A stretch of DNA of 64,000 nt from Galerina marginata (Eukaryota > Basidiomycota > Agaricomycetes > Agaricales > Galerinaceae). The position numbers were made by a program, and so were the translations under genes. Numbering within the stretch: the first letter of the stretch is position 1; every line of letters begins with the position of its first letter. Positions 27,559 through 47,822 of the stretch are shown one piece after another. The notes below the pieces were generated by a model. That model searched no databases. It was not told the DNA's origin and worked only from the letters and a program-made list of their open reading frames with translations. Location of the stretch: positions 62,001 to 126,000 of the forward strand of contig JAECYW010000034.1 in NCBI GenBank assembly GCA_023014335.1, written 5' to 3'.

Positions 27559-28141
27559 ATGTTCTCCAAGCTCGCATTCTTCTCCGCCGTCTCCATGGCC
27601 GTCTTCGTCGCCGCCTCTCCATCCCTCGGCGGACTCCCTGTCCCCGCTGGCGACTCCGCTATGAAACATGGATCAGACCTTTTCGTGACTCGGGGGGACA
27701 ATCAGTGCAATACCGGCCCTGTTCAATGCTGTACGCAACTCTCTTTTATTTCTACTGCCGTTCGATCTAATATTGGTTCCCTCTTTTAGGCGACGCCGTC
27801 TACGAATCCAACAGCAAAGAATCTAACTTCTTCGAGGCCTTTATGGGCAATATTGCAACCCCTCCAAACACGCTCATGGCCTCTTCGTGCAGCCCAGTCT
27901 CCACTGCAGCGGGCGGTGCGGAGAACGCTTGGTCAGTAGTGTTTTATTTCTCTAGTTTGGGTTATTTTGACGCGTCCCTCCCCTTTCTAGTACTGCGCAG
28001 ACGGTTTGCTGCACCGACAACAACTACAGTAAGTCTTTTTTTTTCACCGTCTTCGATGCTTCTTTGCTGACTATATTTTCTTTAGAGGGCTTCGTCGCAT
28101 TCGGGTGCTCGCCCTTCAACATCCGCAACCCTGCGGCTTAG
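27559..28141 (+). CDS. Class I hydrophobin 2
   Basis: Exons 27559-27730, 27790-27931, 27991-28028 and 28086-28141 give 135 residues. The first 36 residues are nearly identical to hydrophobin 1, including the whole signal peptide. All eight cysteines are present: CNTGPVQCC, MASSCSP, the split TG|T codon for C5, TAQTVCC and FGCSP. Exon lengths 2-4 (142, 38, 56) equal those of hydrophobin 1, showing recent tandem duplication. The stretch before C1 differs (DLFVTRGDNQ), and changes in the C3-C4 loop concentrate around IATPPNT. Expected to be a cell-wall surface coat protein. Confidence 0.93.
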
Positions 28142-28410
28142 ATGGATCTCGCTCTCTGGTTCTGAGATCGGCGTCATTGCGAAGTGGAGGACCTTTCTGG
28201 CTTTTATCATCACTTCTTTCCCCTTCTTTTTTCTGCCCAAAATACCTACCTAATACCAGTCAATATATATTGTCTCAATTTCATATTTCCTTTGTTATAC
28301 CCAAAATTGACTAAGATAGACGAAAACCTCTCAAGTGGGCGTGCTTGCATTCCACATTCAATGCATCACTCAACAACTGTACTTCCTATTACCCACCCCT
28401 ACTTTGGACA
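28142..28410. other. 3' region of hydrophobin 2
   Basis: Homologous to the sequence after hydrophobin 1 (CTCGCTCTCTGGT, GGCGTCATTGCGAAGTGGAGG), marking the end of the duplicated unit. Confidence 0.45.
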
Positions 28411-28581
28411 ATGCTTTCAAGGCTCGCTTCCTTTTCCGTTGTACCTAAGGTCGTCTTCGTCGTTGCCTCTATCTCGCTTGGGGGTCTCCCGGTCGGCGGT
28501 GACTCCGCTACGAGATACAGATCCAACTTCCAATTGCCATATCTTCTTCAACGACACCCTCTAGTACAACCAACTAAATAA
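28411..28581 (+). pseudogene. Hydrophobin remnant lacking all cysteines
   Basis: The open frame begins MLSRLASFSVVPKVVFVVAS then SLGGLPV and GDSATR. This matches the signal peptide and pro-region of the neighbouring hydrophobins (MFSKLAFFS..., SLGGLPVPAGDSAM). After GDSATR the sequence departs and ends within about 20 codons, with no CNTG..CC block and no later exons. It is therefore a 5' fragment left by duplication and deletion. It could at most encode a short secreted peptide. Confidence 0.75.
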
Positions 28582-29286
28582 GAAAAAAGCCTTGTTGACG
28601 ATAGACTACCCGAAACAAATTTCGATCAGAATTCGTCCCGTTCGCGAATCATGCCCGTTCGCGAGCAACTTTATGTCGTTCAGTGCCTGGACTTTCTGGG
28701 TCGCCTCGCTTATCAGAGTCAACGAACGGTACCTTCTGAATCGTTTTCTTGCACAGAGCAGTGTACTGCTTTCACCCGGTAGATGCTTCTCTTCCCAAGT
28801 TGATAAACCATGAACGTCTTTGAATTGGAACTGAGTAGTGACTGGGTGTAAGTCCTTCCATCGCACAGGTTGTAGTTAATTCTTGATCGCGCCTAATCAT
28901 GCTAATGCTCAACGACAGCCGCAAAAACCGGTTCTGTCTTCCGAATGGGCGAGAAGCTTCGACGTTGTCGGTCTCGGAAAGTAAACATTCAGTTCGTAAA
29001 CCGAGAAGACTCCGAGTCTGGGTGATCTTTAAGAGAAGTCAAATTGAACGCGTAGAATAAAGTCCTGAAACAAATGGGTATATAAAAGAAGAAAAGGAAT
29101 GACGAGGTATATAAAGTAGATCAGAAAATAGATATATGAAAAGTAAAAGAGTATAAAATAGGTGTTGGATCGAGAAGAGATGGCGGGCGACGGAAGGAGA
29201 GTGATTATGACCGATTTCAACCTGCTGTCAACGACGTCCCATCTTAACTAGCGATCGATACCCATCTAAGGCCCCCCCAAAGAAGC
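28582..29286. other. Intergenic
   Basis: Short frames only. 29040-29170 is purine-rich on the plus strand (AAAGTAAAAGAG type). Confidence 0.35.
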
Positions 29287-29884
29287 TTAATCGAAGAAGT
29301 TTACGGGTGAGCAGCCGAATGCGAGAAAGCCCTCTATAGAAGATACTGTCAGCAAAAATCTGTGAGAACGAGGTGGATAAGACTTACTGTAGTCGTTGTC
29401 TTTGCAGCAAACCGTCTGCCCAGTGCTGGAAAAAGAAGGCCAAGTCAAAAGGTGTTCAATGAACAAAAGGCGGCAAAACTGACCAGGTAGAAGAGGCGCC
29501 ACCATCTCCAGTAGAAACTGGGCTGCACGAGGAGGCCATCATACCGGCGGGAGGGTTGTTCCCGCCTCCGCCTCCGCCCCCGTTTGCTACGACATCGGCA
29601 CCGCCCATAAAGCTTTGAATAAAGTTGGTTTCCTCGCTATTCGATTCGTAGACGGCGTTGCCTGAGGAAAGGAATATCAGACCGGGAGATAGTAGCAAGA
29701 ACAGAAGATACGTACAGCATTGGACAGGGCCGGTGTTGCACTTCGAGGAACCCCTGGCGACGTGGTCGGATGACTGTTTGATAGCGGCGTCGTCGACGGG
29801 AACAGGGTGGGCTCCAAGGGAGGGGGAGGCGGCGACGAAGACGGCCATGGAGACGACAGAGAAAAAGGCGAGCTTAGAGAACAT
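29287..29884 (-). CDS. Class I hydrophobin 3 with glycine-rich loop
   Basis: Third hydrophobin, transcribed towards the other two. The signal peptide is MFSKLAFFSVVSMAVFVAAS, then SLGAHPVPV. The cysteine pattern is CNTGPVQCC, ASSCSPV, the split C5 codon (TG|C), TGQTVCC and LAFGCSP, ending VNFFD at 29287-29289. The loop between C3 and C4 carries an insert with seven consecutive glycines flanked by asparagine and proline (NGGGGGGGNNPPAG), absent from the two paralogues. Intron positions are conserved. The longer, flexible C3-C4 loop could alter assembly; that is inference. Confidence 0.92.
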
Positions 29885-29977
29885 CTTTGTAGAGTGAGGA
29901 TGGGTTGTTGGGAGTAAAACTGTGTTGATGTTGCTTTGAATGCGGGATGAAGGCGATGGTTTGAATGGGGGGCGAGG

Positions 29978-30135
29978 GCGTCCTCTTTATAGCCCTTTCG
30001 CCTGCCTCAAAAGACTGTCAGCCATAGGAAAGTGGTGGCTGACGGTCACGTTTTAATTTCGAAGCCAACCAAGAGACACGCTTTTGCGATTTCGATCGAG
30101 CCCAAATCGAAGTTGGTCAGCCTCTCCTGCAGAAA
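29978..30135 (-). promoter_or_regulatory. Conserved hydrophobin promoter block 3
   Basis: Reverse complement of the block upstream of hydrophobin 1, with only scattered mismatches over about 150 bp. TATAAAG (minus) lies at 29985-29991, about 101 bp before the ATG at 29884. Confidence 0.65.
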
Positions 30136-31891: not shown

Positions 31892-33087
31892 CTAAAACCA
31901 TTGAATATTGGCGTCATCGACATCCTCGCCGCGCTAAGTAGATTCCAGGTCAGAGAAATCCTACGGCCTTACCATTGAAATTAATAGGTACCTTGAACCA
32001 TTGAATGTTGCCATCGTCAACGTCCTCGCCGCGCTAAGTAGAGTCCAGGTCAGACGAGTCTTATGATCTCGCTATCGAATTTAATTAAATACCTTGAACC
32101 ATTGAATGTTGCCTTCGTCAACGTCCTCGCCGCGCTAAGTAGGGTCCAGGTCAGAGGACTCTTATGATCTTGCTATCGAATTCGATAAATACCTTGAACC
32201 ATTGAATGTTGCCGTCGTCGACATTTTCGGCACGCTGAAAATTCAGTTCAGAACAGTACCAATATTCTGGCACCAAGCCGACAAGTACCTTTAGCCACTG
32301 GATATTACCCTCATCGACATCTTCAGCACGCTACGAATACTAATGAAAACGAATATTTGGCTGATTTAGAAGTCATTCATACCTTCAACCACTGGATGTT
32401 GGCATCATCAACTTCTTCTCCACGCTATAAATACAGGTGAGAACTGATTCTGTAATTTTTCTGCAGAAAGTAATACCCACCTTGAACCATTGAATGTTGC
32501 CCTCATCAACGTTTTCGGCGCGCTATTAACTTAGCTGAGAATGGTTCTGTAATCCTGCGAAAATACGGTGGTTACCTTGAGCCATTGGATGTTGCTGTCG
32601 TCGACATCCTCGCCGCGCTAACAATGCAATTGAGAATGGATATGTAGTCCTATATGTAGAAGCAAATAATACCTTGAACCATTGGATGTTGCCTGCGTCA
32701 ACGTCCTCGCCTCGCTATATATAAAATAAGGGTCTGCTCAATGACCACGGAAACCGATGGATACCTTCAACCACTGGATATTTCCCGCGTCGACATCCTC
32801 GGCACGCTGAAAACGTGGTCAAATGGGCTGGTCTAATCCTCTTGAGCAGGAGGAATACCTTAAACCACTGGATGTTACCATCGTCGACATCCTCGGCGCG
32901 CTGTAAAATCAACTGAGGACGGTAAATTCATTCCATAAATAAAATAAGAACCTTCAGCCATTGAATGTTGCCCGCGTCAACGTCTTCAGAGCGCTAATTG
33001 TTCAAATAAGAACAATGGTGCAATTCCATCGAATAAAATAATTACCTTCAACCATTGAATGTTGCCTGCATCAACGTCTTCAGAGCG
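31892..33087 (-). repeat. 13 tandem 42-nt coding repeats separated by short introns
   Basis: The period is about 88-107 bp, of which 42 bp is exon. The exon part is strongly conserved, mainly with synonymous changes or changes at repeat positions 2, 3, 7, 8 and 13. Introns differ in most units, but those after repeats 11-13 are themselves alike (CTAAGTAG, then TCCAGGTCAGA), showing the latest duplications at the 3' end. Confidence 0.95.
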
Positions 33088-33214
33088 CTAGAAAGTATTT
33101 GAGAACGGCCACTGTGACTGGGTATAAAAATTGTCGCCTTACAGCCTGAATGGGTGCAGCGAAAGACATGGCGATAGCAGTGTTAACAATAGCGGCATAG
33201 AAAGCAGTCTTCAT
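31892..33214 (-). CDS. Secreted repeat precursor (Kex2-processed peptide / RiPP precursor)
   Basis: Fourteen exons encode a 24-residue signal peptide (MKTAFYAAIVNTAIAMSFAA, then PIQA) and 13 repeats. Each repeat is one 42-nt exon: 33046-33087, 32952-32993, 32859-32900, 32765-32806, 32673-32714, 32576-32617, 32481-32522, 32393-32434, 32289-32330, 32193-32234, 32093-32134, 31992-32033 and 31892-31933 (the last ends in a stop instead of Lys). The repeat consensus is R-[SAG]-E-[DNE]-V-D-[ADES]-[GAS]-N-I-Q-W-[FL]-K. All introns are phase 0, so Lys at each exon end meets Arg of the next and makes a Kex2 site. Kex2 plus carboxypeptidase trimming would release 12-mers such as AEDVDDGNIQWF. The divergent neighbours are two UstYa-type proteins, the usual partners of such precursors. 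Predicted total length is 205 residues. It has no cysteine, and no tyrosine outside the signal peptide. Confidence 0.92.
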
Positions 33215-33893
33215 TTTGGAGAAGAGGTATATGTCGATGTGGAGCTTTAGCTGCTTGAGTTCTTTCTCTTTGGAAGAATTCTAAAGATCTGACTGACCTG
33301 ACTAGCTCTTTATACGTCTCAAGAGCCTCAACTTTCTTGGTTTTGAAACTTGCAAAGTCCACAAGTTGGAATCCGGTGTTCATGATTTAGCCGTTACGGT
33401 GTTTTGAACGGCTCCGGTAACTCCAGGAGTCAAGGTAAATGGACCTCCTACACGATGGCCGATAGTGAGCTTCCGCACAAAGTACTAATAGTGATATGTA
33501 TATCCTGCCTTTTGCCTTGGAAAAATTTTAAGAAGAAGAAGCCACGAGGACGAGCTTGGGACGAGCAATTTTCGGAGATATTAATAAATACCGGCAACCT
33601 CCCATATGGAGTGACCGTAGCGGGCATTGGCAGTATTATTTTCAGCTTGGCCCGGCATCGGATCACCTGCAGGGCCCATCATGAAAAAAGAGAAGAACCC
33701 AGTCCAAGCACGGTCAATACTCGAGTACAGCTTGGGATGTCAGATTGGAGTACCCGAGTTACGCGGTAGCTTCGAAATCTCTGGATGCGTCCATGCTTGT
33801 TCGAGAGTTCATATTTCTATTAATATTCTACTTTCAATACCAAGTGCTCGTCAAGTCAAGAGGCTATCGACTGCCCACCTCTTTCAAGTTGTC
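33215..33893. promoter_or_regulatory. Divergent promoter region, precursor / UstYa A
   Basis: A 679-bp gap separates the start codons. TATAAAG on the minus strand (33308-33314) lies about 95 bp from the precursor ATG. Open frames in the gap (33404-33769 plus) have no domain. Shared bidirectional control of the two genes is inference from the arrangement. Confidence 0.5.
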
Positions 33894-34861
33894 ATGTCTT
33901 ACCAAGCCCTTGCTTCACAAGATCCAGAGTTCTTCCTCGACGAGCCAAAATCCGTCTCCCGAGTTCAGAGAGTACGCCAGTTTATCACCAAGAATAGAGG
34001 ACAATTATTTGTACTTCTTCTTGGGGTCATAGCACTCGCTGAACTAGGCGCCATCTTCAACAAGGGTTTGGTCTGTATCACCTGCCTGGACAAGCCAAAG
34101 TGGAACATGGTATATTGTGCGGACATTGACTATAATCGATTTTCCTGCGACTAACAGACCACGCTACAGCCCCTGCTAACGAAGCTGTTGAATACCACGT
34201 CCGAACCCACTACGGGGACGCTGGGGATAATGTCTCCCCCGGTTTTTGGGGACCACCTTCTCCCGAAGTCGATCAACACTGGCAGTCGTTATCTTCTTGT
34301 AGGTGTTATTCTACACTACTCGTCGTAGTAGTAATTTCTTACACGTAATTCAGACTCCATCTCAAAGATTCCGAAGCACCAAGCAGCCTTACTTCCCAAC
34401 AAGACCTCTCCCATTCCTAGTGACAGAGACAATTACGTCGCAGGATTAGATGTTTTCCACCAGCTGCATTGTTTGGTAAGCCCTGCTCGTGTCGGCATTT
34501 ATTCTTGTAAATCAGACTGATATAAGGGGTCGTCTGGCAGAACATGATTCGACAGGCGTTGCACCCTGAATACTATCCAAAGAGACGTATGAATACGACA
34601 TATGGCGATTGGCACATCCGACACTGTGTCGATAGCGTCAGGCAATCGCTTATGTGTTCCGCAGACATAAGCGTTATTGTCTGGCAGTGGAGTGACGAGC
34701 TTCAAGAGACTTTTCCGAGAGGAAATATCGCGCACACCTGCCGGAACTATGAAAAAATTCAAGATTGGGCGAAAGAGCGCGTGTTTGACTTCAGTCAATA
34801 CTTCGACTACCGAGTTCATACGGTAGATGATCTCGTCATTCCCATATATCATTCTGGGTAG
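33894..34861 (+). CDS. UstYa-family (DUF3328) protein A
   Basis: Member of the UstYa family, membrane-bound proteins that carry out oxidative (often macrocyclising) steps on ribosomal peptides such as ustiloxin. Exons 33894-34116, 34170-34298, 34354-34475 and 34541-34861 join to 264 residues. A single membrane span lies at about residues 42-57 (LFVLLLGVIALAELGA). The join of exons 1 and 2 rebuilds VYSPANEAVEYHV, a family hallmark. Two HxxHC motifs are present: HQLHC at the end of exon 3 and HIRHC in the last exon, followed by DSVRQSLMCSADIS and VIVWQWSD. Tandem paralogue of the next gene and divergent from the repeat precursor. The start was set by the MSYQALASQDPEFF exon, since upstream in-frame sequence is not family-like. 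Confidence 0.93.
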
Positions 34862-35485
34862 TTTTTATATCGTATCATAACTTCGTAACTGATTTGGTGA
34901 TTTCTATTCAAATAAGTTATCAGGACTATTAGCTTAAATCAGCACTTCCCCGCTTCTTTCTGTCCTGCCAAACTGCCTGTTTAACCCCAATGAACCACGA
35001 GTAACGTAGCTGGGGAAGATTAAACGCCAAGAATAAGAGATAGAAAAATTGACCATCCCCATGAGATCTATCAGTTTAATAACCGTTAATACCCAAGGGG
35101 TTTACGCTCTTCAGCAAGAAGAAAAGGACCCGCTTCAAGTTACCGTTGGCCTAGAATACTCCGTAAAAGAATACAGTCCGTTCGGCTCTCGATCTACCCT
35201 AAAATTCTTTGACTCTGCACCAATAACAATGCTTTAGTTCCGTTGAAATGTGCACACTATTATTTCCAACGGACCAGGCTACCGGTCTGATACTGAGGAC
35301 CGGACTCCGGACCGAGGTGACCGACATCAGGTTGACGCCTTGCGCACGGTCATTACAACCAATAAGTAGATGGCAGACGGGATCATAATGATATAACTTT
35401 GATTATACGCGCGGGACAAATGGGGCTATACATGTAGACTTGAACTTAAGATGGCCTGCGAGTGAAAAATAGCCCAGCTCTTACT
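34862..35485. other. Intergenic between UstYa genes
   Basis: 624 bp. A 62-codon frame (35049-35237) has no recognisable features. It contains the promoter of UstYa B. Confidence 0.4.
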
Positions 35486-36440
35486 ATGTCCCTCGACCAT
35501 TTGAACCCAGTGGAGGAAAAGTACTCCACTTCCCTCCATGATGCAGACCTCGAAAACACCGTCTACGACCAATACAAGCCGCGACCTTGGGTAACAAATT
35601 TCAAGACTATCTTACTCGGGTCGTTGCTGGGATTTGCAGCGCTCGTCGAATTCATCCTGCTTTACAAAGGCGAGCGGATTTGCTTTCGTCGGGAGGAGAA
35701 TTTGTCGGACATTATACTGTACTGTAAGTCTTGGGCCACTGACTAGGCTGCACTGATTGAATCTTTGCTCGAATACAGCACCCGCTCAAGGTGTCGTTGA
35801 ATATGAACTTCGCAAGCACTATTCCAACGTGGGGGAAAATGATATTTCACCTTTCTGGAAGCCTCTTTCCCCCGAGCTCGACCAACAGTGGGAAGACTTA
35901 TACTCCTGTAAGCATTCAAATATTGACCAACGTAGTAACTTATACGAATCGTCCTACAGTCGGAATTTCCAGAATTCCAAAATCGCAGGCTGTATTACTG
36001 CCGAACAAAACTGCGCCCATTCCTGGAGATGAACAGAACTACATTATTGAGCTTGACGTCTTCCATGAGCTTCATTGCTTGGTACGTCCTTTCCGATCCT
36101 AAACAGCCGTTAATCCTTAAAAATTACCCAGAACATGGTTCGCCAGTCCTTATATCCCGCTCATTATCCTCACATGTCGTTGAGCAACCCAAATATGACC
36201 TGGCATATTGGACACTGCCTGGATAGCATAAGGCAATCACTGATGTGTTCGGCGGATATCAGTGTTCTAGTGTGGCAGTGGAGCGAAAAATTCCAAAGTA
36301 CTGTCGAACACGGGAACGTTACTCATACTTGCCGGAAATTTGAGAAGATTCAAGATTGGGCAAAAGACAGGAGGCTCGACATTGAATTCGATACGAAATA
36401 CCACGTAGCAGATGATATTACTGTGCCAGTCTACCATTGA
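35486..36440 (+). CDS. UstYa-family (DUF3328) protein B
   Basis: Exons 35486-35723, 35779-35907, 35960-36081 and 36132-36440 give 265 residues. Exons 2 and 3 have the same lengths (129 and 122 nt) as in UstYa A, and all three intron phases (1, 1, 0) agree, so the two arose by tandem duplication. The membrane span is at about residues 47-64 (ILLGSLLGFAALVEFILL). YSPAQGVVEYEL is formed across intron 1. Motif one is HELHC (DVFHELHCL) and motif two is HIGHC, followed by LDSIRQSLMCSADIS and VWQW. An in-frame ATG 24 bp upstream (35462) is an alternative start. Its role is probably a second oxidation, or heterodimer formation with A, on the NIQW repeat peptides; this is inferred from known pathways that need UstYa/UstYb pairs. 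Confidence 0.93.
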
Positions 36441-37706: not shown

Positions 37707-39859
<2,153 letters not shown>

Positions 39860-41048
39860 ATTATTAAATAAATCAACGAGAGAGGAGGAAAGGAGTGGTG
39901 AGGACGAATAAATGATAAGTATAACGAGCTGGTTTGGAGAGTCTTTATACCTGTACGATTTTTTAAATCCAACCTGTGTCCTATTTGGCAGATGAGAATG
40001 GTAAGCGCATCGGGAAGCTGATTCCTATCTAACGTGGTTGGGAAATATCAAGACGAAAATAGGTTGAAACGTGTTCGCACCTAGGTATGTATGGCCGAAA
40101 ACAAAAGCAATTGACATATTAATAATTCAGCGCTAGTAATGGGGCGGCAGGGATGCCATACCGGGGAAAGATGTCGAGCCTCAATGCCCCGAGGAACTGG
40201 ATAGTGGCCAGATCGAACATCCCGACACCTACGGGCAGGTGCGACGCAGGTTAAAAGCATATCAGAATTGACAATATTGTGGATCACTGTCTCGGGTATC
40301 GAGGCATAAGCGGAAGTTGCATCATAGCGATAATGCTGCGGATTCGAGCGCTTCTTCGTATTCAGTTACAGCGCGAAAAGCAAGCAAAAAGCGACCTCTG
40401 AATCGGTTGAGCGCTGACGAAGGATTCATGCAACATATTTCTGGTTTTTCTACTTGACGGTAAAAAGCTTCAAGGCATTGGCGGTGACTAGCCTTTCCAT
40501 TCTTCGGTAGTGTTATTTCGGGTATGCATATCCGAAACTTGGGAACGGAAGATCTCTACCCGAATTACAGTCAGTCTCTGTGGATTTGTTGAAAGCGCAC
40601 TGAAAGGTTTTGTAACACCAACTTTGATAAAACCGTTAATTAGCCCCACGTTAATAGCAGACCGAGGTTTCTGTACTGGACTCCAGATGAAGAAACCCGA
40701 TCTGGGGACTGTCGGTGGTCCCATAACGTGCCGGACATTCTGCAAGAGCGCCGAGGAAAAGATATGTGGGCATTTGAGCTTTTGTGCCCGGAATATTGTC
40801 CTTGAGGATGTTATGCTACTACTGACCTCTGAACCTTCAGGACAGAAGACGGTACACATGCAGGCAATAAATCTCGCGAAAAAATTCTAATCCGGGGTTT
40901 GAAAGATCATCTGCCAATTTATACGAATGACAACCTTACGCTCTTGACGCCAGTTGCAGATGATGGATTTCACCAATGCTAGCTCTTTACGGTAATAAAG
41001 ATATGGTCGGGATGCGAAGTCGTGAGCTTGAGCTGCATAGCGGTACAC
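39860..41048. other. Intergenic; promoter of peroxidase and unassigned frames
   Basis: Two overlapping antisense frames at 40488-40890 (123 and 126 codons) have no domain. Nothing else was supported. Confidence 0.35.
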
Positions 41049-46075: not shown

Positions 46076-47822
46076 ATGGGAAGACGGGATGATTTCGACA
46101 AGGTAAGCAAGAGCTTTTCGCCATACATTTACCAAATACCTAACTTTTCTGGGTCGTTCGCAGCCTCATGGAATACAAGACGCGGAAAAGGAGCTACCAG
46201 GCGACGACGTGTCAGGTGTAGAGGAGCTACCGGCACTCAAGAGGAAGTTGAAGAGTCGGCACCTGCAGATGATCGCGATTGGTGCGTCCGGACTCGCCTC
46301 TGACTCACCCTATGCATGCTTACGGGTTTTGTCTGAAGGTGGGACGATTGGAACCGGTCTATTCATCGGTAGCGGTGGGGCGATCAACAAAGCTGGCCCA
46401 GCAGGCGCTCTTATCGCATATATTTTCGTTGGTTCCATCGTATACTCTGTCATGGTATCCCTGGGCGAGATGGCGACTTACCTTCCCATCTCGGGAGCGT
46501 TTACGGCGTATGCTGCGCGTTTTGTCGACCCAAGTTTGGGATTCGCCATGGGATGGATATATTGGTTCTCCTGGGCCATTACCTATGCCCTGGAGCTGAC
46601 CGCGTCGGGTTTAATCATCCAGTACTGGGCCCCGAACCTCTCCATTGCAATTTTCATCGGCGTATTCTGGGCCGTCATCACCTTCATAAATTTTCTCCCC
46701 GTCAGATTTTTCGGCGAGTTCGAATTTTGGTTTTCGAGCGTCAAAGTCATCACCGTCGTTGGATTCATCCTTTTCGGAATCTGCATCGACGCCGGCGCAG
46801 GACAAAACGGCTACCTCGGCTTCCACACTTGGAAAAATCCAGGCGCATTCGCACCTTACCTCCTCACCTCTACCGGCTCTCTAGCCAAGTTTGTCGGGTT
46901 CTGGGCTGTGCTAATTCAAGCCGGCTTCTCATACCAGGGCACTGAGCTGGTCGCCATCGCAGCAGGCGAGACAGAAAACCCTCGCAAGAACGTCCCCGCC
47001 GCCATCCGCAAGACGTTTTACCGCATCCTCCTGTTTTTCGTTTTCACCATCTTCTTTATCGGACTCCTCGTCCCATACGACGATCCCGACCTCCTCTCCT
47101 CCGCCTCCAACGCCACCGCCTCTCCCTTCGTCATCGCCGCCAAGCGTGCAGGCGTCAAGGTTCTCCCTGGACTAATCAACGCCATCCTCCTTTTTGTAGT
47201 TCTCTCCGCCGCGAACTCAAACGTCTACTCGGGTAGCCGTATCCTTGTCGGTCTCGCAAACGAACGCTGCGCACCCGCATTTTTCAAACGAACATCCAAG
47301 CACGGTGTCCCATATGTTGGCGTCGCGATCACTGCCGCATTTGGGCTACTAGGCTTTCTCAACCTCTCCGAAAACGGTGGCACGGTGTTTAACTGGCTGC
47401 TCAACATCTCAGCCGTCGCGGGGTTCATCGCCTGGGCATGTATCAACCTTTGCCATCTCGCCTTCATGCGCGCGCTTCGTGTACGCGATATCTCCCGCGA
47501 TTCGCTGCCTTACAAGGCCATGTGGCAGCCGTACTTCTCGTGGTTTGGTTTGTTCTTCAACGTTCTGATCCTGCTCACGCAAGGATTCACGGCTTTTATA
47601 CCATGGGACACGACGAATTTCTTCATTGCTTATGTTAGTTTAATACTTTTCGTCGTTCTTTATATCGGGCACAAGGTTCTTTTCCGGACGCGGTTTGTGA
47701 AACCAGAGGAGGCGGATATTGTCACTGGCCACATAGAGTACGATGATTCAGCATCGACTCGTAGCAGTAATCGGGGTGACAGTAACACATTGTGGGGAAA
47801 AGTGATGGGATTGTTCGATTAG
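46076..47822 (+). CDS. Amino acid permease (APC superfamily, YAT type)
   Basis: Plasma-membrane amino acid/proton symporter of the fungal YAT family (PF00324). Exons 46076-46102, 46164-46281 and 46339-47822 give 542 residues, the usual family length. After an acidic N-terminal tail, LKSRHLQMIAIGGTIGTGLF is rebuilt across intron 2; this is the family signature of span 1. About twelve hydrophobic spans follow, for example GALIAYIFVGSIVYSVMVSL, YWFSWAITYALELTA, FILFGICIDAGAGQNGYLGF, FQ-type GTELVAIAAGETENP (substrate region), LLFFVFTIFFIGLLVPYDD, SAANSNVYSGSR and a C-terminal span (FFIAYVSLILFVVLYIG). The 57-bp second intron is a multiple of three and free of stops, so an unspliced frame is also open. 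Substrate specificity cannot be read from the sequence. Confidence 0.95.

What the first reader, a model, noticed from the sequence alone, without database searches (positions are those of the whole stretch)
31892..36440. Candidate basidiomycete RiPP cluster: 13-repeat Kex2 precursor beside two UstYa proteins
A secreted precursor with 13 near-identical 14-residue repeats bounded by Lys-Arg sits divergently next to two DUF3328/UstYa proteins with paired HxxHC motifs. In ascomycetes this pairing makes dikaritins (ustiloxin, phomopsin, asperipin-type). Here the repeat core is N-I-Q-W-[FL] with an acidic leader stretch and no tyrosine, unlike the characterised families, and the host looks basidiomycetous. 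The product would be a Trp/Phe(Leu)-containing, perhaps cross-linked peptide.
Basis: partly seen in the sequence, partly recalled or inferred. Interest (0 to 1): 0.95.

Follow-up and report, generated by a model that had tools for sequence, protein, structure and literature searches.

The report
One-exon-per-repeat mushroom peptide precursor cluster
A Galerina-type mushroom genome carries a gene in which each of 13 near-identical copies of a short peptide sits between splice signals as its own predicted 42-letter exon, beside two UstYa-family genes that likely cross-link the peptides it would release; two sister copies of this three-gene set in the same genome carry different peptide repeats, suggesting a little-explored family of mushroom natural products.

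Summary
In detail: 33214-31892 (-) encodes a signal-peptide-like exon plus 13 repeats ending NIQW[FL], divergent from two UstYa (PF11807) genes, each with both HxxHC motifs. Every repeat is its own predicted 42-nt phase-0 exon, and splicing would assemble the Lys-Arg Kex2 site (K from one exon, R from the next). The genome (69 Mb, close to Galerina marginata) holds two paralogous modules in the same gene order: C43 (16 exons, core NIIWS) and C39 (4 exons, core SINWG). A genome scan for the shared V-D-x-x-[NS]-I-x-W codon pattern gives 46 hits; 33 fall in these three arrays and 13 are single. The UstYa genes form two clades, A and B, branching in the same order, so the module was apparently duplicated as a unit while its core diverged. 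A published G. marginata gene model joins three C39-type repeats at the predicted junctions. Most likely a dikaritin-like RiPP system in a basidiomycete, without tyrosine; an Ile-x-Trp link is my guess. Transcription, splicing in this species, enzymology and product are untested. New variant of a known kind.

The parts
33143..33214 (-). Precursor exon 1: MKTAFYAAIVNTAIAMSFAAPIQA, signal-peptide-like by inspection
   Evidence: paralogous exons MKFSLLFAIVSTAVTVSFAAPLES (C43) and MKSTLLFAVLSAAVTLSFAFPIES (C39)
33046..33087 (-). Repeat exon 1 RSEDVDAGNIQWLK
32952..32993 (-). Repeat exon 2 RSEDVDAGNIQWLK
32859..32900 (-). Repeat exon 3 RAEDVDDGNIQWFK
32765..32806 (-). Repeat exon 4 RAEDVDAGNIQWLK
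32673..32714 (-). Repeat exon 5 RGEDVDAGNIQWFK
32576..32617 (-). Repeat exon 6 RGEDVDDSNIQWLK
32481..32522 (-). Repeat exon 7 RAENVDEGNIQWFK
32383..32424 (-). Repeat exon 8 RGEEVDDANIQWLK
32289..32330 (-). Repeat exon 9 RAEDVDEGNIQWLK
32193..32234 (-). Repeat exon 10 RAENVDDGNIQWFK
32093..32134 (-). Repeat exon 11 RGEDVDEGNIQWFK
31992..32033 (-). Repeat exon 12 RGEDVDDGNIQWFK
31892..31933 (-). Repeat exon 13 RGEDVDDANIQWF-stop: needs no Lys-Arg trimming at its C terminus
33215..33893 (.). Divergent intergenic region between the precursor ATG and the UstYa-A ATG (candidate shared promoter)
   Evidence: coordinates; shared regulation is inference
33894..34861 (+). UstYa-A, four exons (33894-34116, 34170-34298, 34354-34475, 34541-34861), 264 aa, HQLHC and HIRHC motifs; the orthologue's model has an N-terminal helix (35-62), a membrane anchor by inference
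   Evidence: same splicing in GALMADRAFT_215420 (P0001)
35486..36440 (+). UstYa-B, four exons (35486-35723, 35779-35907, 35960-36081, 36132-36440), 265 aa, HELHC and HIGHC motifs
   Evidence: partial G. marginata protein GALMADRAFT_77870, 98% over 185 columns

Best explanation
The locus holds one signal-peptide-like exon plus 13 one-repeat 42-nt exons, as its splice signals predict, divergent from two genes of the UstYa family that likely oxidise and cross-link the peptides that would be cut from the precursor. Predicted order of events: the array is spliced, so that each Lys (3' end of one exon) meets the Arg that starts the next and a Kex2 site forms at every junction between repeats (inferred from sequence; the same kind of junction is present in an annotated G. 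marginata gene model). The protein enters the secretory pathway, a kexin cuts after Lys-Arg and a Kex1-like carboxypeptidase trims the basic residues, leaving 12-mers [SAG]-E-[DNE]-V-D-x-x-N-I-Q-W-[FL] (inferred). UstYa-A and UstYa-B, which appear membrane-anchored, then modify the conserved N-I-Q-W-[FL] end, most likely by a -2H link between Ile and Trp (my guess, about 0.3; spacing i to i+2). Because all 13 exons are phase 0 and 42 nt, exon-plus-intron units could be gained or lost by unequal crossing-over without breaking the frame. The confidence below is for the UstYa-modified Kex2-peptide reading as a whole.
For: Exon structure and phases. Coding constraint on the repeats: 514 of 700 differences at third positions, 371 synonymous against 212 non-synonymous codon differences, mean identity 78% for exons against 57% for introns (50% when introns are shuffled). 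Two paralogous modules with the same three genes in the same order and orientation, on contigs C43 and C39; C43 repeats carry the same signature, 750 of 1117 differences at third positions. Genome scan: 33 of 46 hits in the three arrays, 13 scattered single hits, 9 hits for the reversed control pattern. Tree of 30 proteins: the A-type UstYa form one supported clade and the B-type fall in another (with a Gymnopilus protein at its base), each with C28 and C43 closest and C39 outside. Of the window's ORFs of 35 aa or more, those with a listed match (E <= 1e-4, 25 or more aligned residues) to the fetched UstYa loci all lie in the precursor/UstYa stretch. P0121 (GALMADRAFT_1359447) joins three C39-type repeats at the predicted K|R junctions and lies on a contig of the same length as that of a UstYa-B orthologue. 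P0001 has the predicted UstYa-A splicing. The genome has 3 matches to the kexin P domain. UstY enzymes are reported as dicopper oxidases that make aromatic cross-links (PMC12186524, passages read).
Against: No transcript, protein or product evidence for this genome. No Tyr in the repeats, whereas ustiloxin, phomopsin, asperipin and epichloecyclin links involve Tyr (PMC9233826, passages). The C39 UstYa-A has lost both HxxHC motifs (HEIRC, QVKQC), so not every module needs two active enzymes, or that module is decaying. In the C43 precursor only 5 of 16 repeats are preceded by Lys-Arg; the other 11 have a single Arg with Ser before it, and Ser is not among the favoured P2 residues quoted in PMC8528282, so the Kex2 reading is weaker there. 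The same holds for Ala at the first C28 site. No gene other than precursor and UstYa pair was found shared between modules (22 kb read around C43, 10 kb around C39), and no tyrosinase, methyltransferase or peptidase of classical dikaritin clusters was seen in the 13 flanking ORFs scanned. Of the 18 other UstYa loci read, 14 showed no counted precursor array, so most UstYa genes here are not visibly paired with one. P0121 departs from my C39 model after its third repeat. The motif used for the genome scan came from the arrays themselves.
Confidence: 0.7

Rival explanations
1. A linear, unmodified Kex2-processed repeat peptide (signal or surface peptide, as in known agaric KEPs), with the UstYa genes as neighbours that act on something else.
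For: Most basidiomycete KEPs have no DUF3328 gene nearby (103 of 1680 do; PMC7329392 passages), and minimally modified KEP peptides are reported in four agarics (PMC9769878, part of the abstract and passages).
Against: The three related arrays found in the genome all sit divergently beside a UstYa A+B pair, and A and B branch in the same order: linkage kept through two duplications.
Confidence: 0.15
2. UstYa-modified, but not by an Ile-Trp macrocycle: hydroxylation, desaturation or a link to the acidic V-D half. This is a variant within the main reading.
For: UstYa-family proteins also desaturate residues, hydroxylate and chlorinate (PMC10512285 and PMC12048977 passages). V-D is as conserved as I-x-W across the three cores.
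Against: Nothing here excludes it. The invariant aromatic Trp two residues after an invariant Ile resembles the aromatic-aliphatic links of the family.
Confidence: 0.35
3. A decaying or non-expressed array: repeats kept by gene conversion, not by function.
For: The C39 module has only 4 repeats and a UstYa-A without its histidines.
Against: Excess of third-position and synonymous change in C28 and C43, intact splice-site dinucleotides at 13 of 13 introns and intact UstYa motifs at C28, and UstYa-A 96% identical to its G. marginata counterpart.
Confidence: 0.06

Closest known systems
Dikaritins (ustiloxin, phomopsin, asperipin-2a; victorin and epichloecyclin also counted)
   Same: Secreted multi-core precursor with Kex2 sites, encoded beside DUF3328/UstYa genes with two HxxHC motifs
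   Different: Host is a basidiomycete; no Tyr; conserved V-D-x-x-[NS]-I-x-W; every repeat on its own predicted exon; only precursor and UstYa pair found shared between modules
Basidiomycete Kex2-processed repeat proteins (KEPs; Le Marquer 2019 PMC6339444, Umemura 2020 PMC7329392, PMC9769878)
   Same: Signal peptide and short repeats between dibasic sites; a minority with DUF3328 genes nearby; Trp-containing types exist
   Different: The words intron and exon do not occur in the first two main texts and intron occurs once in the third, for intron-less cDNA cloning; here each repeat is its own predicted exon and the module is triplicated with diverged cores
Galerina marginata CBS 339.88 proteins GALMADRAFT_215420, _77870, _80543 and _1359447
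   Same: Orthologues of C28 UstYa-A, C28 UstYa-B, C39 UstYa-B and the C39 precursor
   Different: Named hypothetical; a C28-type precursor was not found (one hit at E <= 1 among the 7992 candidates that were scored)
Plant BURP-domain burpitide cyclases
   Same: Copper-dependent cross-linking of aromatic side chains in ribosomal peptides (PMC12186524, start of abstract and passages)
   Different: Different enzyme family and kingdom; an analogy only

Membership tests
Dikaritin-type RiPP | Secreted precursor with repeated cores separated by Kex2 sites | tested here: met
   13 repeats, Lys-Arg at 12 of 12 inter-repeat junctions in the predicted spliced model; signal peptide judged by inspection only
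Dikaritin-type RiPP | DUF3328/UstYa protein with two HxxHC motifs (class-defining, per PMC12048977 passages) | tested here: met
   PF11807 in both genes; two HxxHC in C28 A and B; these columns invariant in an alignment of 65 of the 120 listed relatives
Dikaritin-type RiPP | Tyr in the core (usual but not universal; victorin links Phe and Leu) | tested here: not met
   0 Tyr, 13 Trp, 7 Phe in the 13 repeats
Dikaritin-type RiPP | Accessory tyrosinase, methyltransferase, peptidase or transporter (original five-gene definition) | tested here: inconclusive
   None found shared between modules; only 13 flanking ORFs of the window were scanned with Pfam (3, 10); one of these is an amino acid permease 9.7 kb beyond UstYa-B
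Dikaritin-type RiPP | Post-translationally modified, cyclised product | not testable with these tools
   needs LC-MS/MS
KEX2-processed repeat protein | Signal sequence and short repeats flanked by Kex2 sites | tested here: met
   depends on predicted splicing
Alpha-pheromone-like KEP with Ste13 trimming | XA or XP dipeptide after the Kex2 site | tested here: not met
   repeats start SE, AE or GE after Lys-Arg
Amatoxin/cycloamanide (MSDIN) family | Precursor processed in the cytoplasm by a prolyl oligopeptidase | tested here: not met
   multi-core precursor with a signal-peptide-like start and no Pro in any repeat

The most novel reading that the evidence does not exclude
A Trp-based dikaritin-like RiPP family of mushrooms whose precursor genes are exon cassettes: one core per phase-0 micro-exon, the protease site assembled by splicing, so that copy number and core mix can change by exon gain, loss or skipping without frame cost, while a duplicated precursor-UstYa-UstYa module invents new cores (NIQW[FL], NIIWS, SINWG). 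The products would carry Ile-x-Trp cross-links.
Probability: 0.3. Interest if true: 0.85.

Novelty: new variant of a known kind. Interest (0 to 1): 0.68.

Why it matters
The experimentally described UstYa-made peptides in the review passages that I read are from ascomycetes. Here one mushroom genome gives a compact, testable set: three paralogous three-gene modules with different cores, which would allow core-versus-enzyme specificity to be read directly. The one-repeat-per-exon layout also bears on a question in print, why unstable repeats persist in these precursors (PMC10512285 passages): introns make neighbouring copies less alike in DNA, and exon cassettes keep frame. It implies that searches for contiguous repeats in unspliced ORFs can miss such precursors: no annotated C28- or C43-type precursor was found among the 7992 candidates scored in the protein search.
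Full report
OBSERVATION. The minus strand from 33214 to 31892 holds an exon for MKTAFYAAIVNTAIAMSFAAPIQA followed by 13 stretches of exactly 42 nt, each preceded by AG and starting with an Arg codon; 12 end AAG before GT and the last ends in TAG. The introns are 50-59 nt, and 13 of 13 are GT...YAG. Joined, they give a 205-residue protein with Lys-Arg at all 12 inter-repeat junctions; the first repeat follows IQA-Arg. So the Kex2 dipeptide is split between exons: Lys is the last codon of one exon and Arg the first codon of the next. The final repeat ends NIQWF-stop, which supports [FL] as the C-terminal residue after trimming (inference).

CODING, NOT CHANCE. Among all pairs of the 13 exons (first 13 codons), 514 of 700 differences are at codon position 3, and codon differences are synonymous 371 times and non-synonymous 212 times; pairs are not independent. 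R, E, V, D, N, I, Q and W are each invariant at their position in 13 of 13 while their codons (Trp apart) vary; exons average 78% identity, introns 57%, shuffled introns 50%. Six 10-kb control stretches of the same window show no repeat family above two copies (the last two stretches overlap by 3 kb).

NEIGHBOURS. Two UstYa genes lie divergently: UstYa-A 33894-34861 and UstYa-B 35486-36440, four exons each, PF11807 in both, two HxxHC each. These motif columns are invariant in an alignment of 65 of the 120 listed relatives. The predicted splicing of UstYa-A is that of GALMADRAFT_215420 of Galerina marginata CBS 339.88, 96% identical. The host is therefore a Galerina or close relative; the held genome has 69.3 Mb in 43 contigs.

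THE REST OF THE GENOME. PF11807 gives 49 exon-level matches, which I group into 22 loci. Counting only arrays that follow a signal-peptide-like start, 5 of the 19 have a repeat precursor within the stretch read: C28, L027, L031, L032 and L039; 14 do not. At C43 (L027) a signal-peptide-like exon (MKFSLLFAIVSTAVTVSFAAPLES) is followed by 16 exons of 39 or 42 nt with core NIIWS. At C39 (L031), MKSTLLFAVLSAAVTLSFAFPIES is followed by four exons of 42-45 nt with core SINWG and a possible last exon RSDD-stop (my reading). All three modules have the order precursor(-), UstYa-A(+), UstYa-B(+), or its mirror image. A degenerate codon pattern for V-D-x-x-[NS]-I-x-W finds 46 places in the genome: 13 at C28, 16 at C43, 4 at C39 and 13 isolated ones; the reversed control pattern finds 9. 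The pattern was drawn from the arrays, so this says that no further array matching it was found, not that there is an unbiased enrichment.

HISTORY OF THE MODULE. In a tree of 30 proteins (six from this genome and 24 of the 120 listed relatives) the three A proteins and GALMADRAFT_215420 form one clade (100/99). The three B proteins and two G. marginata proteins fall in another with a Gymnopilus junonius protein at its base (99/97; the fork without Gymnopilus has 88/80). In both, C28 and C43 are closest and C39 lies outside; pairs from one locus do not group together. Of the window's ORFs of 35 aa or more, those with listed matches to the fetched loci all lie between 32.7 and 36.5 kb (22 kb were read around C43 and 10 kb around C39). 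The simplest reading is that precursor+A+B was duplicated twice as a unit while the core changed. The C39 A protein has lost both HxxHC motifs (HEIRC, QVKQC), so in that module only B is likely to be an active oxidase, or the module is decaying.

INDEPENDENT SUPPORT FOR SPLICING. A profile search with the three precursors found one protein among 7992 scored candidates: GALMADRAFT_1359447 of G. marginata (P0121). It reads signal-peptide-like start, then three C39-type repeats joined at the predicted K|R junctions, then a different tail. It lies on a contig of the same length (314699) as that of the C39-type UstYa-B GALMADRAFT_80543. It is an annotated model; I do not know whether transcripts support it.

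PROCESSING. The genome has three kexin P-domain matches. In C43 only 5 of 16 repeats are preceded by Lys-Arg; the other 11 have a single Arg, with Ile or Leu at P4 (I-W-S-R, L-E-S-R), which fits the extended Kex2 motif of PMC8528282 at P4 and P1 but not its favoured P2 residues (passages read). The first C28 site (I-Q-A-R) is of the same kind. Cleavage there is inference.

CHEMISTRY. UstY enzymes are reported to be dicopper oxidases making, for example, a Tyr-O to Phe-C-beta link (PMC12186524 passages; the primary paper was not held). Ustiloxin and phomopsin link an N-terminal Tyr to an internal Ile; epichloecyclin has Ile first and Tyr internal (PMC9233826 passages). The repeats here have no Tyr, His or Cys, and I-x-W is invariant across the three cores. 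An Ile-Trp link is therefore my best guess, but Asp/Val modification, hydroxylation or desaturation are open.

WHAT IS KNOWN. Of 1680 basidiomycete KEPs 103 have DUF3328 genes nearby, and a Trp-containing type including Galerina (P-3) is listed (PMC7329392 passages). Pleurotus has 16 UstYa-like genes, 6 developmentally expressed (PMC8893723 passages). So UstYa genes and their pairing with KEPs in mushrooms are not new. In the passages and search listings named under Tried and rejected I found no report of one repeat per exon. Only open-licence PMC texts were searched, and supplementary tables could not be read.

VERDICT. A real three-gene module, most likely a dikaritin-like RiPP system of a basidiomycete with an unusual exon-cassette precursor. 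Filed as a new variant of a known kind; modification and product remain untested.

Noticed in passing
L039:7823-9440 (C39, + strand; UstYa match at L039:4935-5261, - strand): A second, sequence-unrelated one-repeat-per-exon gene: signal-peptide-like start and 12 similar copies, 11 modelled as 69-nt phase-1 exons (L[NS][GAPS]R-SPPKNSPLGMTTETSNTE type), again divergent from a UstYa gene; LNxR fits the LxxR Kex2 motif. No relatives among 7995 scored candidates in a protein search.
   Followed up: partly
L032:5967-6515 (C23): A repeat precursor near a UstYa gene with its repeats contiguous in one exon: 57-nt units (GIDGVSFAHAYTSRAED-type, containing Tyr and His), as in classical dikaritin-like KEPs.
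   Followed up: partly
L031:3927-4108 (C39 UstYa-A): UstYa-A of the C39 module lacks both HxxHC motifs (HEIRC, QVKQC) that are invariant in 65 aligned relatives: a possible non-catalytic partner.
   Followed up: partly
L027:8614-9342 (C43): Five of the repeat exons in this stretch begin with an extra AAR codon just after the acceptor AG, supplying the Lys that the upstream exons lack; possible tandem acceptors could switch KR sites on or off.
   Followed up: partly
L034 and L035 (C16, C33); L035 and L044 (C33, C18): Stretches 95.9% identical over 5.9 kb and 99.8% identical over 1.9 kb between contigs: recent duplications or uncollapsed haplotypes in the assembly.
   Followed up: no
window 27771-29986: Two oppositely oriented frames with similar small, possibly secreted, cysteine-containing sequences, hydrophobin-like by eye (recalled); one (29456-29986) was scanned and no hydrophobin family was matched.
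   Followed up: no
window 39322-40024 (-): Exon-like pieces with a motif that I recall from fungal class II peroxidases (RLAFHDAIGFS); no peroxidase match in Pfam for the two pieces scanned.
   Followed up: no
window 46107-47822 (+): Amino acid permease in one long open frame (PF00324, 3e-147).
   Followed up: no
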